Shown piece by piece: positions 29,075-63,112 of a stretch of 64,000 nucleotides of DNA. A model generated the notes under the pieces. That model was given only the letters and a program-made list of their open reading frames with translations. It ran no database searches and was not told where the DNA came from. The stretch comes from Clostridia bacterium (GTDB lineage: Bacteria > Bacillota > Clostridia > Oscillospirales > Acutalibacteraceae): NCBI GenBank assembly GCA_017521125.1, contig JAFXDV010000001.1:1-64000 (forward strand), in the 5' to 3' direction. Made by a program: the position numbers and the translations under genes. Position 1 is the stretch's first letter; each line of letters opens with the position of its first letter.

Positions 29075-29204
29075 GTTTGCAGAAGTTAAAACAACTGTGG
29101 GCGGATAGGACTTTGGAGAATTCTGACAAGGATTTACATCCTTGAGCAGATGCCGAAGGGGCAAGGCGAGTTATCGTTAATCTCTCAGGCGAAAGGACAA
29201 AGGG
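29075..29204 (+). promoter_or_regulatory. Glycine riboswitch (single aptamer)
   Basis: The conserved core is directly visible: GGAGAATTCTG (29115-29125), GCCGAAGGGGCAAGG (29152-29166) and AATCTCTCAGGCGAAAGGAC (29179-29198), closed by CTTTG/CAAAG. Only one aptamer core is present. Upstream GTTTGCAG (29075-29082) can pair, with several G-U pairs, to CTGTGGGC (29095-29102), possibly the ghost stem of a singleton switch. It precedes a Na+:alanine/glycine symporter, matching a common target. Confidence 0.9.
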
Positions 29205-29222
29205 TTATAAGATTTTTTGTTT

Positions 29223-39069: not shown

Positions 39070-40092
39070 ATGATTACAACTAAACCCTTTGGATTTACTA
39101 AAAATGGTTGTGCCGCAACCCTTTACACCATATCAAACGATGAAGCTTCGGTATCCATTATGGATTACGGCGCTACCATAGTTAATTTTATAGTTCGTGA
39201 CAAAAACGGCAAGGACACCGATATTGTATTAGGCTTTGATGACGTTTCGGAATATGAAGCCGACCACGACACCTATTTTGGCGCCACCATTGGAAGATTT
39301 GCTAACCGTATTGAGCATGGTACCTTTAGTATAGGAAATGAGACCTATCATCTTCCCATAAACAACGGGCCTCACTCTAATCACGGCGGCAAGGATGGCT
39401 TTTCTTTTAGATTTTTTGATGTTAAGACATACGAAAATTCACTTAAAGCCTCTATTCTTTCTCCTGACGGAGAAGAGGGTTACCCAGGTAATATGAACTT
39501 TTCGGTGCTCTTTACCCTTGTGGGCAAAGAGCTTAGCATAGAGTATTTTGCAAAAAGCGATAAGGACACCCTGGCTAACTTTACAAGCCACTCCTTCTTT
39601 AATTTGGGCGAGGATAACATCTTGGACCATTCTCTTCAGGTCTTTGCCGATGCCTACTGCGAAAATGACGAAAACAATCTTCCCACAGGCAGTATTTTAG
39701 CGGTTGACAATACCTTAATGGATTTCAGAGAGCCTGCGGTTTTATCCGAGAGAATTTTAAGTGATGAGCCTACCTTTGTCAGAGCAGGCGGTGGTCTTGA
39801 CCACAATTTTGTTCTGTCCTTTTATAGAGGAGAAGTGAAAAAAGCAGCTACGCTAAGGAGCGAAAAAAGCGGTATTTCGGTTTCCTTCTACACCGACCTT
39901 CCGGGAATTCAGGTTTACACCGCAAACTATGCCAACGTAATAGGCAAAAACGGAATGAAGTGCGGCAAGCACTCAGGCGTTGCCATTGAAACTCAAGGTT
40001 TCCCAAATTCTCCTAACGTTAGCTATTTCCCCTCTTCTATCCTAAAAGCAGGAGAAGATTTTTACAGTAAAACTGTTTATATCGTAGAATAA
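39070..40092 (+). CDS. galM: Aldose 1-epimerase (mutarotase)
   Basis: The 340-residue enzyme interconverts alpha and beta anomers of aldoses such as galactose and glucose. The active site is seen in TIGRFANRIEHGTF, NNGPHSNHGGKDGF (His), FTSHSFFNLGEDN (catalytic His) and HSGVAIETQGFPNSPN (catalytic Glu). Length and order match galM. It follows the ATPase gene by three bases without functional relation, so cotranscription is likely but not informative. The stop at 40092 is the first base of the inverted-repeat element. Confidence 0.95.
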   Translation: MITTKPFGFTKNGCAATLYTISNDEASVSIMDYGATIVNFIVRDKNGKDTDIVLGFDDVSEYEADHDTYFGATIGRFANRIEHGTFSIGNETYHLPINNGPHSNHGGKDGFSFRFFDVKTYENSLKASILSPDGEEGYPGNMNFSVLFTLVGKELSIEYFAKSDKDTLANFTSHSFFNLGEDNILDHSLQVFADAYCENDENNLPTGSILAVDNTLMDFREPAVLSERILSDEPTFVRAGGGLDHNFVLSFYRGEVKKAATLRSEKSGISVSFYTDLPGIQVYTANYANVIGKNGMKCGKHSGVAIETQGFPNSPNVSYFPSSILKAGEDFYSKTVYIVE

Positions 40093-40404
40093 AAAATGAT
40101 GAGCCTTCGGAACGCACCCTTAAGGACAAATTGGTTTTGGAACAAAAATTAGCCCTGTCTCTTTGCCTCAAACCTTGAAATACACAGAGTATTTCTTCGG
40201 TTTGTCGGCTTCGAGAACAGAACAAATTCTTATGTTACAAAACTGCGCAAAGCACCTAAAAAAGATAAATTTTTAGTGGGATAAAAGACGAAAAGACACG
40301 GTAATGCTGACGCATACCGTGTCTTTTTAACACATTAGACCGCAAAAATTTGCTTTTTTAGACAGTTTCTCCTTAAGGGTACGTTCCGTTGGCTCATCAT
40401 TTTT
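40092..40404. repeat. MITE-like element with 35-bp inverted repeats
   Basis: Arm 40092-40126 (AAAAATGATGAGCCTTCGGA...) is repeated inverted at 40370-40404 with 32 of 35 matches. Between lie about 240 bases without a gene, including a terminator-like hairpin at 40291-40328. Both arms, read inward, encode nearly the same peptide (NDEP, S or T, ERTLK, D or E, KL). The right arm overlaps the stop of the AraC gene. Confidence 0.6.
40291..40328. terminator. Bidirectional terminator within the inverted-repeat element
   Basis: AAAAGACACGGTA (40291-40303) pairs with TACCGTGTCTTTTT (40315-40328); T-runs occur on both strands. It serves galM and probably the AraC gene. Confidence 0.82.
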
Positions 40405-41254
40405 GTTTTTTACTAAACTGTTTTCTATACGCTTTTGGTGTGCAATTATAAAAGTTCTTAAAGGTCTTATTAAAATACTGTATGGTAGAAAAGCCAGAAT
40501 CAAAGGAAATTTCTCCAATAGTTTTATCTGTATTGAGGAGCTGATTTGAAGCATTACTCAGCCTTAAGAAGTTTATATAACTTACAACAGTAGAACCTGT
40601 TGCCGCCTTAAATTGTCGGCACAAGCGATATTTGTCAGTGCCTGTGGCTTTAGATATTTCCTCTAAAGAAATTTCTCTCGTGTAGTTGTCTTCAATGAAC
40701 TCTAAAACCGTCTTTAAGCCTTTTAGCTTTTCGGTATCGTAGTAAGATTCCGGATCGGTAAGGAGTTTATTCCTATACATAAAGGCAATCAGCAACTGTA
40801 TATATGCCTTTATATAGGCTTCAAAATTCGCTTTTTGATTAACCGACTCGTCAAGAAATTTTTCAAATATTTCGGAAAGCTCCTTTTCATCCTTAGATAA
40901 AAAGTAGTCCCTGTCGTGAAGGCTCGTTATAAATTTGTTAATAAAATACTCGGTGTAATTTATATGCTGTCTGAAATACCCCTCGATATCTATTTGTATA
41001 TAGTATATATCGGCAGGTTTTACGTAGCAGAGGCGGTGCATTACGTTACTATTGATAAACATAATTTCCCCTGATTTTAAAACAAACTCCTTCTCTCCTA
41101 CTATACATTTTATTTCTCCGCTATTTATTTTTACAAGCTCTACAGCATTGTGAAAATGTATGCCTCTGAGAAACTGACTATCCTTTTTAATGGTCATTTG
41201 TTTAAAGTTGAAAAAAAGACGGGGTATTTTAAAACTTATTTTTTCCTTTTCCAT
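40397..41254 (-). CDS. AraC-family regulator with cupin domain
   Basis: The 285-residue protein begins after the GAGGG ribosome site at ATG 41254 (an ORF start at 41278 lacks one). An N-terminal cupin-like ligand domain contains FLRGIHFHNAVELVKINSGE and a strand ending MFINSNVMHRL. Two helix-turn-helix motifs end the protein: ISLEEISKATGTDKYRLCRQFKAATG and the GEISFDSGFSTIQYFNKTFKNF block. It is divergent from the two ceramidase-like genes, which it likely controls. The last codons lie in the inverted repeat, which may have replaced the original C-terminus (SKKQK). Confidence 0.9.
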   Translation of the reverse strand: MEKEKISFKIPRLFFNFKQMTIKKDSQFLRGIHFHNAVELVKINSGEIKCIVGEKEFVLKSGEIMFINSNVMHRLCYVKPADIYYIQIDIEGYFRQHINYTEYFINKFITSLHDRDYFLSKDEKELSEIFEKFLDESVNQKANFEAYIKAYIQLLIAFMYRNKLLTDPESYYDTEKLKGLKTVLEFIEDNYTREISLEEISKATGTDKYRLCRQFKAATGSTVVSYINFLRLSNASNQLLNTDKTIGEISFDSGFSTIQYFNKTFKNFYNCTPKAYRKQFSKKQK

Positions 41255-41323
41255 CGTTCCCTCGCAAGATAGTTTCAAAATTTAGCAATATTAGTGTAGA
41301 AAAACACAAAATTGTTTTATATA

Positions 41324-41381: not shown

Positions 41382-42881
41382 ATGAAGTATGGTTGGGCAG
41401 AAGAAAAATTCGTATTTCCAAAACCTGTAGCTCTTATGGGACAGTTTGCAACTCGTATCTCTGAGTACGAGGAAAAGCCACTTACTGTTACCGCTCTTGC
41501 GGTTGACTCAGGCGAGGACCAGATGGTTTTATGCGGTGTTGACATCATAGGCATTAACTATCCTTTAACAGATGAAATTCGCAGACGTTTAGCAGATGTT
41601 AAAGGCCTTGACCCTATGAAAGTAGTTGTCAGCGCAATTCACACTCATACAGGCCCCGGATACACAGGCCGTGGCGGAAGAAAAGCAAATATCGGCTTTG
41701 ACCCTGCTATTTATAATGAAAAAATCAATTCATTGGTGCCTGCTGAAAAACGTTACGTAGACAAGCCAAACGTATATGAAAACCCTGATATTATGAATGG
41801 CGACGAGCTTTTAGAGGAGATTGCATCCAAAATAGCAAAAGCTATTGCTACCGCCTGGGAAACTCGCAAGGAAGGCTCCTTCTCCAATGCTTTCGGCCGT
41901 GCAGTTGTTGGTATGTGCCGCCGTGTTTCTTATAACGATGGTTCTGCTCAAATGTGGGGCGATACTAATACTGCTATGTTCACCGAGCTTGAGGGCGGAA
42001 ACGATTCGGGTATTGAGCTTATGTACGTATTTGATGAAAACAAAAAGCTTACCGGTATTGTTGCAAACCTTGCTTGTCCTGCACAGTGCGTACAACACAG
42101 ACATTTCATTTCTCCTGACTTCTGGGGCGAGGCTAAGATGCTTTTAAGAAAGCATTTCGGCGAGGACCTTTTCCTCTTACCACTATGTTCTGCAGCAGGT
42201 GACCAGTGTCCTGTTGACCTTGTTCGTTGGGTTGAACCTGAAAGTGACGTTAACGATCCTAACTTAAAGAGAAATAATCCTCCCAAACGTAAGGCAGACC
42301 CATCAATGTTTGACCTTGCAGGTATGAGAAAAACTGGAAAGCGTATCGCTAACGAGATTATTGAAGTATATAACGAGGGCTTGGATGAGCCTCAGACCGA
42401 CGTTCCTCTAATTCACCACGTTCACAATATGCAGCTCCCCTTACGCCGTGTTACTATGGCTGAAGAAAAGGAAGCTTGTAAAGAAGCTCGTGAGTATCTT
42501 ATGCGCAAAGAAGAAAAGACCGACTTTAACGATACCGCAAATCTTCAAAAGGCTTTTGGTATCATCAGACGTGCTCTTCTTCAGGAAATTCGCGATGTTG
42601 TTGATACCGAAGTACATATCATCCGTCTTGGCTCTATTGCTTTCGCTTCTAACCCATTTGAGCTCTTCCTTGATTACGGAAATCAGATTAAGGCAAGAAG
42701 CAAGGCAGAACAAAGCTTTATTATTCAGCTTGCTTGTGCGGCTGATGGTTATCTCCCTACCGAAAAGGCAGAAAAGGCCGGTCACTACAGCGCATTTGTT
42801 GCCAGTGGTACAATTGGACATATTGGCGGCGAACAGTTAGTTAGAGAAACCGTTCAAGACATTAACGAAATGTTTAAATAA
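41382..42881 (+). CDS. Neutral ceramidase-like hydrolase, copy 1
   Basis: The 499-residue protein resembles the N-terminal domain of neutral/alkaline ceramidases and related bacterial proteins of unknown substrate. Family-like blocks are VVSAIHTHTGPGYTG (metal-binding His), the Asp-rich GEDQMVLCGVDIIGI, LACPAQCVQHRHFISPDF and LPLCSAAGDQCPVDLV. There is no signal peptide, so an intracellular amide or ester hydrolase is more likely than a secreted ceramidase. ATG at 41382 follows GAGGTAA; the ORF extends upstream without ribosome site. It is followed after 15 bases by a close paralogue. Regulated probably by the divergent AraC protein. Confidence 0.75.
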   Translation: MKYGWAEEKFVFPKPVALMGQFATRISEYEEKPLTVTALAVDSGEDQMVLCGVDIIGINYPLTDEIRRRLADVKGLDPMKVVVSAIHTHTGPGYTGRGGRKANIGFDPAIYNEKINSLVPAEKRYVDKPNVYENPDIMNGDELLEEIASKIAKAIATAWETRKEGSFSNAFGRAVVGMCRRVSYNDGSAQMWGDTNTAMFTELEGGNDSGIELMYVFDENKKLTGIVANLACPAQCVQHRHFISPDFWGEAKMLLRKHFGEDLFLLPLCSAAGDQCPVDLVRWVEPESDVNDPNLKRNNPPKRKADPSMFDLAGMRKTGKRIANEIIEVYNEGLDEPQTDVPLIHHVHNMQLPLRRVTMAEEKEACKEAREYLMRKEEKTDFNDTANLQKAFGIIRRALLQEIRDVVDTEVHIIRLGSIAFASNPFELFLDYGNQIKARSKAEQSFIIQLACAADGYLPTEKAEKAGHYSAFVASGTIGHIGGEQLVRETVQDINEMFK

Positions 42882-42896
42882 AGTGAGGCAAATTTT

Positions 42897-44396
42897 ATGA
42901 AATATGGTTGGGCAGAAGAAAAATTTGTATTCCCAAAGCCTGTATCTCTTGACGGACAGTTTGCAGAACGCATTTCTCAGTATGAGGAAAAGCCATTGAC
43001 TGCTACCGCTCTTGCAATTGACTCAGGAGAAGACCAGATGGTTTTATGTAGTGTTGATCTGGTTGGTATCTCATATACTTTAACAGATGAAGTCCGCCAA
43101 CGCTTAGCCCAGTGCACCAAGGACCTAGACCCTATGAAAGTGATTATCAGCGCTATCCACACCCACACAGGACCAGGCTATGCCGGCAAAGGTCAAAACA
43201 AGTCATCAGAAGGCCACACCTCTTCTTTCCGTGAAAACATTAAGAGTATGCTTCCTGCGGGTAAAAAATACGTTGAAAGCACCAACGTATCTGAAAACAA
43301 GGATATCATGAGTGGCGAAGAGCTTTTAGAGGAGATTGCCTCCAAAATAACAAAGGCTATTGCTACCGCTTGGGAGACACGCAAAGAAGGCTCATTCTCC
43401 AATGCTTTCGGACGTGCTGTTGTTGGTCTCTGCCGCCGTGTTTCTTATAACGATGGTTCTGCTCAGATGTGGGGCGACACCAATACTGCTATGTTCACCG
43501 AGCTTGAGGGCGGAAACGATTCGGGTATTGAGCTTATGTACGTATTTGATGAAAACAAAAAGCTTACCGGTATTGTTGCAAACCTTGCTTGTCCTGCACA
43601 GTGCGTACAGCATAGACTCTTTATCTCTCCTGACTTCTGGGGCGAGGCTAAAATGCTTTTAAGAAAGCATTTCGGCGAGGAAATTTTCCTCTTGCCACTT
43701 TGCTCTGCCGCAGGCGATCAGTGTCCTGTTGACCTTGTTCGTTGGGTTGAACCTGAAAGTGACGTTAACGATCCTAACTTAAAGAGAAATAATCCTCCCA
43801 AACGTAAGGCAGACCCATCAATGTTCGACCTTGCAGGTATGAGAAAAACTGGAAAGCGTATTGCTAATGAGATTATTGAAGTTTTCAACGAGGGCTTAGA
43901 CGAGCCTCAGATCGACGTGCCTTTAGTACATCACGTTCATAACATGCAGCTCCCACTACGCCGTGTTACTATGGCTGAAGTTAAAGAAGCACAAAAAGAA
44001 ATACGTGACTATCTTGCAAACAAAGAGGGTGACGTAGATTACAACGATTCAGGCAATCTTCACGGACCTATTGGCATTATCAAACGTGCCAAGCTTCAGG
44101 AAACTCGTGACATTGTGGACACCGAGGTTCATGTTATTCGTCTTGGCTCCATTGCTTTTGCTTCTAACCCCTTTGAGCTTTTCCTTGATTACGGAAATCA
44201 GATTAAAGCAAGAAGCCTTGCAGAACAGAGCTTTATTATTCAACTTGCTTGTGCGTCTGAGGGCTATCTGCCCACTGAAAAGGCAGAAAAAGGCGGTCAC
44301 TACAGCGCCTTTGTTGCCAGTGGTACAGTAGGACACATTGGCGGTGAACAGCTGGTTAGACAAACCGTACAAGACATTAACTCAATGTTTAAATAA
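42897..44396 (+). CDS. Neutral ceramidase-like hydrolase, copy 2
   Basis: The 499-residue tandem paralogue of the preceding protein has identical length and the same motifs (IISAIHTHTGPGYAG, LACPAQCVQHRLFISPDF, LPLCSAAGDQCPVDLV). The main divergent stretch is residues about 100-150 (QNKSSEGHTSSFRENIKS versus the other copy), near the presumed substrate region. Conserved His, Asp and Cys residues are kept in both, so both are probably active. GTGAGGCAA precedes its ATG. It ends in a strong terminator. Substrates of the two copies may differ. Confidence 0.75.
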   Translation: MKYGWAEEKFVFPKPVSLDGQFAERISQYEEKPLTATALAIDSGEDQMVLCSVDLVGISYTLTDEVRQRLAQCTKDLDPMKVIISAIHTHTGPGYAGKGQNKSSEGHTSSFRENIKSMLPAGKKYVESTNVSENKDIMSGEELLEEIASKITKAIATAWETRKEGSFSNAFGRAVVGLCRRVSYNDGSAQMWGDTNTAMFTELEGGNDSGIELMYVFDENKKLTGIVANLACPAQCVQHRLFISPDFWGEAKMLLRKHFGEEIFLLPLCSAAGDQCPVDLVRWVEPESDVNDPNLKRNNPPKRKADPSMFDLAGMRKTGKRIANEIIEVFNEGLDEPQIDVPLVHHVHNMQLPLRRVTMAEVKEAQKEIRDYLANKEGDVDYNDSGNLHGPIGIIKRAKLQETRDIVDTEVHVIRLGSIAFASNPFELFLDYGNQIKARSLAEQSFIIQLACASEGYLPTEKAEKGGHYSAFVASGTVGHIGGEQLVRQTVQDINSMFK

Positions 44397-62986: not shown

Positions 62987-63004
62987 TTAATTTAAATTTC
63001 ATAA

Positions 63005-63080
63005 TCTCCCTACGACGGCATTATCCATATCAGGTTAAAGGGTTTGAGTAAACTCATCTCAGCCTTTCGGCACCCCTGAT
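63005..63080 (-). promoter_or_regulatory. TPP riboswitch (THI element)
   Basis: Read on the minus strand: CAGGGGTGCCGAAAGGCTGA, then CCTTTAACCTGATATGGATA and AATGCCGTCGTAGGGAGA, all canonical TPP-aptamer elements. Positioned between promoter and terminator of thiT, so thiamine pyrophosphate should repress it. Confidence 0.97.
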
Positions 63081-63112
63081 TAAATATTTAGTTTTTTGTT
63101 CGGTATGGCTGT

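What the first reader, a model, noticed from the sequence alone, without database searches (positions are those of the whole stretch)
40092..40404. 35-bp inverted-repeat element with coding-like arms overlapping an AraC gene end
Two arms match at 32 of 35 positions, about 240 bases apart, with a terminator in the middle. Inward reading of each arm gives almost the same peptide (NDEP-S/T-ERTLK-D/E-KL), with one synonymous change. This looks like a mobile or structured repeat that has supplied the AraC stop codon.
Basis: seen in the sequence. Interest (0 to 1): 0.5.

Follow-up and report, generated by a model that had tools for sequence, protein, structure and literature searches.

The report
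Mini-transposon nested in terminator hairpins
The inverted repeat is a gene-less mobile element of about 280 bases that sits in the loop of a transcription stop signal between two genes; dozens of relatives in uncultured gut bacteria sit in such loops too, and the enzyme that moves them was not found.

Summary
The inverted repeat is real (37 of 42 positions), but it is two nested things. Inside (40108-40388) lies one copy of a dispersed, gene-less repeat, 273-278 bp in 49 of 55 copies, with its own terminal inverted repeats. Outside lie the two 14-bp arms of a host terminator hairpin, split by the element. Between them is a direct TT on each side. Of 63 fully flanked copies, 55 could be bounded: 41 carry a 2-bp direct repeat (re-paired flanks: mean 17.8, maximum 30), and removing the element restores a hairpin with the junction in its loop in 52 of 55. 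Element-free orthologous terminators were found for two other copies, not for the window copy. The element carries a central terminator-like hairpin, and 37 of 58 consensus pairs show compensatory change. Best reading: a MITE-like element that inserts into terminator loops, moved in trans by an enzyme that I did not find. 'Mobile or structured repeat' holds. The 'coding-like arms' follow from any inverted repeat, and the AraC stop codon lies in the host arm. New variant of a known kind.

The parts
39070..40092 (+). Aldose 1-epimerase gene (galM-like); its TAA is 40090-40092
   Evidence: Pfam PF01263, E 3.5e-77; ORF
40092..40105 (+). Left arm of the host terminator hairpin (AAAAATGATGAGCC)
   Evidence: Complementary to 40391-40404 and not shared with the otherwise similar second copy of this genome
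40106..40107 (+). Left copy of the 2-bp direct repeat TT (target site duplication)
   Evidence: 41 of 55 copies have a matching 2-bp repeat here
40108..40388 (+). The element itself, 281 bp
   Evidence: Boundaries from the matching ends of 55 copies
40108..40133 (+). Left terminal inverted repeat (CGGAACGCACCCTTAAGGAC...)
40165..40209 (+). Hairpin of the first internal arm (GCCTCAAACC...GGTTTGTCGGC); its inner part is shared with other repeat families
   Evidence: Folds; matches of this part alone
40235..40257 (+). Most conserved internal stretch TTACAAAACTGC...GCACCT, used as the search pattern
   Evidence: Alignment A1
40291..40328 (+). Central terminator-like hairpin with T-tract (A-tract on the other side)
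   Evidence: Perfect 13-bp stem; one + strand terminator-like site overlapping it; compensatory changes
40363..40388 (-). Right terminal inverted repeat
40389..40390 (+). Right copy of the 2-bp direct repeat TT
40391..40404 (+). Right arm of the host terminator hairpin (GGCTCATCATTTTT)
40397..41278 (-). AraC-family regulator gene; its stop codon (40397-40399) lies in the host hairpin arm
   Evidence: Pfam PF12833, E 7.1e-21

Best explanation
It is a non-autonomous, MITE-like DNA element. A transposase acting in trans (not found) would recognise the 16-20 bp ends, cut the loop of an extruded or single-stranded terminator hairpin with a 2-base stagger and join the element there; gap repair duplicates the two loop bases. 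The host terminator arms then extend the element's own inverted repeat outward. Because the element folds back on itself and carries a terminator-like hairpin, termination for the neighbouring genes is probably kept, so that insertion just behind genes costs little. Shown by sequence: the repeat family, sharp ends, 2-bp direct repeats, placement in hairpin loops behind genes, element-free orthologous terminators for two copies, and compensatory change in internal stems. Inferred: the enzyme, the cutting of the hairpin tip, and preserved termination.
For: Copies in the own genome, in 13 of 60 relatives and in 115 MAG stretches. Of 55 bounded copies: 2-bp direct repeat in 41, re-paired mean 17.8 and maximum 30 of 2000; repeat of 2 to 5 bp in 44, mean 18.9 and maximum 31 of 5000; own flanks complementary, 37 of 55 above the 99th percentile of cross pairs; predicted empty site a hairpin with the junction in the loop in 52, mean -15.1 against -4.85 kcal/mol for cross-joined flanks; T-tract in 50, A-tract in 46; none inside an ORF, and 47 of the 49 with both neighbours visible lie behind at least one gene. 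Element-free orthologous terminators: L186 against L241 and L242, L161 against L285. Length 273-278 in 49 of 55. Ends alike within a genome, different between genomes.
Against: No transposase lies between such ends in the places checked, and the three families tried do not follow the element. 14 of 55 copies lack the 2-bp match, 11 lack any of 2-5 bp. L105 is inserted beside an intact hairpin, in its T-tract. The C15 copy of the own genome (L011) has ATGATGAG arms like the window copy but no A- or T-tracts, and it failed the boundary rule. No empty orthologue of the window copy was found. The consensus scan found a terminator only on the + strand of the window, so the two-way claim there rests on the hairpin's A- and T-tracts. 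No transcript data.
Confidence: 0.75

Rival explanations
1. Insertion is not aimed at loops: the element lands widely and only copies in terminators survive, because elsewhere they harm the host.
For: No copy lies inside an ORF and most lie just behind genes, as purifying selection would also give.
Against: Selection for a harmless place does not ask for the loop itself, yet the junction is in the loop in 52 of 55. One copy sits in a T-box leader terminator ahead of a gene, not a neutral place.
Confidence: 0.12
2. The element spreads through single-stranded DNA or an RNA intermediate (Y1-type transposase, reverse transcriptase or similar), the hairpin being recognised as a folded single strand.
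For: Strong folding of both strands (z about -14); compensatory changes in internal stems; several half copies end near the central terminator (L207, L214, L283).
Against: No Y1 transposase match in G000, G005, G008, G012, G013, G027 or G047, which have element matches. G-T cells do not greatly outnumber A-C cells in the ends (20 to 13) or the central hairpin (11 to 7, column 188 left out), so no single RNA strand is plainly favoured there, though arm 2 (64 to 13) and hairpin 1 (0 to 9) differ. Reverse transcriptases were not searched.
Confidence: 0.15
3. It is moved by an IS1182-family transposase, as IS1272 and TnSha1 in staphylococci.
For: That family aims at hairpins and terminators (PMC4923244, PMC5678879); a remnant of it in G027 appears to lie in a terminator-like hairpin (L224).
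Against: Matches in only 4 of 13 genomes, none in the own genome or in G013 (97% complete, over 20 end matches); the IS ends as read by eye differ; IS1272/TnSha1 make no duplication and delete or replace hairpin sequence, here the hairpin is kept with a 2-bp repeat.
Confidence: 0.08
4. A repeat with coding-like arms that donates stop codons to genes.
For: Near-identical inward peptides; the AraC TGA lies in the arm.
Against: The peptide identity follows from the inverted repeat; the ends differ wholly between subfamilies; the TGA is outside the element boundary.
Confidence: 0.02

Closest known systems
IS1272 / TnSha1 (IS1182 family), staphylococci; PMC4923244 (passages read) and PMC5678879 (abstract and sections 22 and 24 read)
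   Same: Targets hairpins of no fixed sequence, several of them transcription terminators; terminal inverted repeats.
   Different: Carries a transposase; inserts into stems with partial deletion or replaces the hairpin; no target duplication. Here: gene-less, junction in the loop, hairpin kept, 2-bp direct repeat, other ends.
MITEs such as RUP and BOX of pneumococcus; PMC3049150 and PMC10969869 (passages read)
   Same: Short, gene-less, dispersed, folded, with terminal inverted repeats and target duplications; often between convergent genes.
   Different: The passages read do not describe insertion into terminator loops; autonomous partner not found here.
SPRITE, the terminator-like repeat of pneumococcus; PMC3049150 (passages read)
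   Same: Terminator-like repeat close to gene 3' ends.
   Different: Simple 18-bp duplex with T-rich tract and AAAA/TTTT ends; no duplication could be established there.
IS30 and IS630 families (recalled, no paper read)
   Same: Short target duplications of 2 bp (IS30 2-3 bp), IS30 with palindromic targets.
   Different: IS630 duplicates TA only, here AA and TT prevail; no IS30 match in 18 genomes.
REP elements with Y1 transposases (recalled)
   Same: Palindromic repeats behind genes.
   Different: Far longer and more complex here; no Y1 match in the own genome.

Membership tests
MITE | Short, multicopy, terminal inverted repeats | tested here: met
   263-281 bp in 55 copies; ends match
MITE | Target site duplication | tested here: met
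   2-bp direct repeat in 41 of 55 against mean 17.8 re-paired
MITE | No coding capacity | tested here: met
   No ORF of 40 aa or more wholly inside the window copy; other copies not tested
MITE | Derived from or moved by an autonomous element with the same ends | tested here: inconclusive
   None found among 17 places and 8 places; draft genomes, contigs often break in the repeat
IS1182 family (IS1272, TnSha1) | Hairpin as target | tested here: met
   52 of 55 junctions in a hairpin loop
IS1182 family (IS1272, TnSha1) | No duplication; hairpin partly deleted or replaced | tested here: not met
   Direct repeats and complete hairpins
IS1182 family (IS1272, TnSha1) | Transposase present in carriers | tested here: not met
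   4 of 13 genomes match, not G000 or G013; drafts
IS30 family | IS30 transposase in carriers | tested here: not met
   0 of 18 genomes; drafts
REP/RAYT system | Y1 transposase in carriers | tested here: not met
   None in G000, G013, G027; present in 25 of 60 relatives without following the element
SPRITE | Sequence and HMM match | not tested
   Compared by description only
Known Rfam RNA family | Covariance-model match to the element | tested here: not met
   No gathering match on the element in the window; permissive scans gave only chance-level matches or none

The most novel reading that the evidence does not exclude
A lineage of transposition systems whose target is the tip of intrinsic-terminator hairpins, read by shape, with a 2-bp duplication of the loop, carried by gene-less elements that bring a spare terminator and whose two ends change completely in step while staying complementary; the enzyme would be of a kind not yet linked to this behaviour.
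Probability: 0.35. Interest if true: 0.75.

Novelty: new variant of a known kind. Interest (0 to 1): 0.58.

Why it matters
It is a clear natural case of shape-directed insertion into terminator loops, in which target duplications mark the cut and the hairpin is kept, unlike the IS1272 model. It explains composite long inverted repeats behind genes in these bacteria and some contig breaks in their assemblies, and it offers many natural test sites. One copy sits in a T-box leader terminator, so such elements might alter regulated termination. If the enzyme is found, it could place DNA behind genes with little harm.

Tried and rejected
Autonomous partner by end pattern: 17 places in G009, G013 and G027 and 8 places in G066 and G060 were contig ends, truncated copies, deletion products, ordinary pairs, or (L277) a chance hit followed by no element sequence; none showed a gene between two ends. 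Eight further regions were not printed: their contigs end about 120 bases past the element end. Not every unpaired end listed was fetched.

Transposase families: PF13751, NF033563, PF01797: none fits.

tRNA origin of a second repeat family, whose ends look like a tRNA 3' end: ARAGORN found none in L013, L014, L058, L059.

Carriage by viruses, plasmids, phages: no match.

Empty-site comparisons that told nothing, because the terminators were not homologous or the alignment did not span the junction: L056 in three genomes, L154 in three, L147 in two, L200 in one; L143, L089 and three further genomes for L161. L105 and L146 gave no spanning hit in another genome. For the window copy, the epimerase 3' ends of six relatives were printed out of eight asked (L067 and L073 gave nothing): none has a terminator homologous to 40092-40404.

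Rows dropped before counting: of 63 fully flanked copies, L121 (chance hit in Vaginella, no ends) was excluded and seven failed the end-match rule (L090, L125, L126, L129, L134, L169, L004); 55 remain. L087 and L095 are one insertion counted twice; L108 and L180 have doubtful ends but stay in the 55. For the alignment six of the 55 were left out (L095, L108, L180, and the shorter L175, L182, L195).

Full report
OBSERVATION. The inverted repeat at 40092-40133 / 40363-40404 is present: 37 of 42 positions match, 32 of the outer 35. The best 35-mer inverted repeat in 60 single-base shuffles of the surrounding 500 bases was 25 of 35. Both strands of 40086-40410 fold far better than dinucleotide shuffles, z about -14. 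The repeat lies between two convergent genes, an aldose epimerase and an AraC regulator.

OTHER COPIES. The own genome (1.33 Mb, 17 contigs) holds more copies. One is split between two contig ends that overlap by 93 identical bases; joined, it is a second full copy. Its body is close to the window's, but its outermost arms differ (ACTGCGAC / GTCGCAGT instead of ATGATGAGCC / GGCTCATCAT). A search of 60 genomes gave matches in 13, eight of them of the window's genus counting its own; in G012 only a short inner hairpin matches, and in G009 only short pieces. An even sample of the order gave 3 of 295. No viral, plasmid or phage match. The distribution is patchy.

ANATOMY. Of 63 fully flanked copies, 55 passed a rule that used only the match between their two ends. 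Length is 263-281 bp, 273-278 in 49 of 55; the window's is 281 bp, 40108-40388. Ends are alike within a genome and differ between genomes (CGCCGACACCACATAAGG in G027, CGCCCACGCCCCATAGGG in G013, CGGGAGTTGTTCTTAGGG in G066). In an alignment of 49 copies, 37 of 58 consensus pairs have changes on both sides that keep the pair, in the ends, the central hairpin, and elsewhere. In the ends G-T cells number 20 and A-C cells 13; in the central hairpin 11 and 7, leaving out column 188 (17 G-T); in the middle of arm 2, 64 and 13; in hairpin 1, 0 and 9. In the ends and central hairpin this does not single out one RNA strand, so selection there may act on DNA or on both strands; the other two helices point in opposite directions.

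TARGET. Just outside the ends, 41 of 55 copies have the same two bases on both sides (AA 20, TT 17, TA 4), against a mean of 17.8 and a maximum of 30 in 2000 re-pairings. Repeats of any length from 2 to 5 occur in 44 of 55 against a mean of 18.9 and a maximum of 31 in 5000. Further out, the flanks of each copy are complementary to one another: mean score 9.9 own, 4.6 across copies; 37 of 55 above the 99th percentile of the cross values. Removing the element and two bases gives a hairpin with the junction in its loop in 52 of 55, mean -15.1 kcal/mol against -4.85 for flanks joined across copies. A T-tract follows in 50 and an A-tract precedes in 46. These are the marks of intrinsic terminators. 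No copy lies inside an ORF of 100 aa or more. Of 49 copies with both neighbours visible, 23 lie between convergent and 24 between tandem genes, 2 between divergent ones; 51 of 70 distances to a gene 3' end are 13-37 bp.

EMPTY SITES. In L186 the element sits in the terminator of a T-box leader ahead of a gene with a TGS domain, probably threonyl-tRNA synthetase (recalled). The T-box model matches the element-free orthologues at E 1.6e-15 and 3e-14, below Rfam's gathering score. In G062 and G063 those sites have a homologous terminator, a few bases different, without the element; a third, G065, has no element but a diverged terminator. The direct repeat at L186 is 3 bp (TTA), not 2. For L161, the orthologous site in G064 is a terminator of related sequence without the element. 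At the epimerase 3' end, G002 has an intact terminator with stem GCGTCGG / CCGACGC, and G001 has the same left half followed by what looks like an element's left end and no right half. Other comparisons told nothing. No empty orthologue of the window copy was found.

CONSEQUENCES FOR THE FINDING. The near-identical inward peptides follow from the inverted repeat. The AraC TGA (40397-40399) is in the outer arm, so on this reading the element did not supply it. One observation disturbs this: the diverged C15 copy of the same genome (L011) also has ATGATGAG arms, without A- or T-tracts. ATGATGAG occurs 4 times in the window, 1.5 expected, two of them these arms. I treat the agreement as chance, but it is unexplained.

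MECHANISM. The facts fit DNA transposition into the exposed loop of a terminator hairpin with a 2-base stagger, by an enzyme acting in trans. No gene lies between such ends in the places checked, and IS1182, IS30 and Y1 genes do not follow the element. These are draft genomes whose contigs often end inside the element, so an autonomous copy may have been missed. The central terminator-like hairpin and the foldback form suggest that termination survives insertion; this is inferred, and the consensus scan saw a terminator only on the + strand of the window.

COMPARISON. TnSha1 and IS1272 target hairpins and terminators by structure, but delete or replace part of the hairpin and make no duplication (PMC4923244 passages; PMC5678879 abstract and sections 22 and 24). 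MITEs such as RUP and BOX, and the terminator-like SPRITE, share single features (PMC3049150 and PMC10969869 passages). Nine literature searches, seen as listings apart from these four papers, showed me no MITE described as inserting into terminator loops; that is limited to the open library and to these terms.

VERDICT. A new variant of a known kind: well supported in anatomy and target, open as to the enzyme.

Noticed in passing
L206, L216, L217, L274: Deletion derivatives of about 43-45 bp that consist of little more than the two ends back to back, still inside or beside terminator stems.
   Followed up: partly
L207, L214, L283, L274 (second end): Half copies that keep the right end and stop at or near the central terminator-like hairpin.
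   Followed up: no
L013 2278-2552, L014 2429-2701, L058, L059; L025, L034, L062: Other repeat families share one inner hairpin with this element (CCTTGAAATAC..GTATTTCTGCGG) but have different ends: structured repeats in these bacteria look modular.
   Followed up: partly
L186 2162-2434: A copy sits in the terminator of a T-box leader ahead of a TGS-domain gene; effect on regulation unknown.
   Followed up: partly
L009 end and L052; window 40108-40388 and L074: Copies of different subfamilies lie behind what looks like the same gene in different species: one with matching C-terminal codons (probably arginyl-tRNA synthetase, recalled) and the epimerase; repeated independent hits on the same terminator position are possible.
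   Followed up: no
L224 about 1330-2045: A truncated IS1182-family transposase copy appears to lie inside a terminator-like hairpin (GGGGCTGT...ACAGCCCC), as IS1272 does.
   Followed up: no
L011 2501-2785: Diverged copy of the own genome with ATGATGAG arms like the window copy but without A- or T-tracts.
   Followed up: partly
L012 2526-2563, L065 2181-2251: The central hairpin of the element occurs alone, without the rest, between genes.
   Followed up: no
window 62990-63087 (-) and 29103-29210 (+): TPP riboswitch and glycine riboswitch.
   Followed up: no
window 41382-42881 and 42897-44396: Two adjacent, closely similar proteins of 499 aa; the first has no Pfam match at E 0.001, the second was not scanned.
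   Followed up: no
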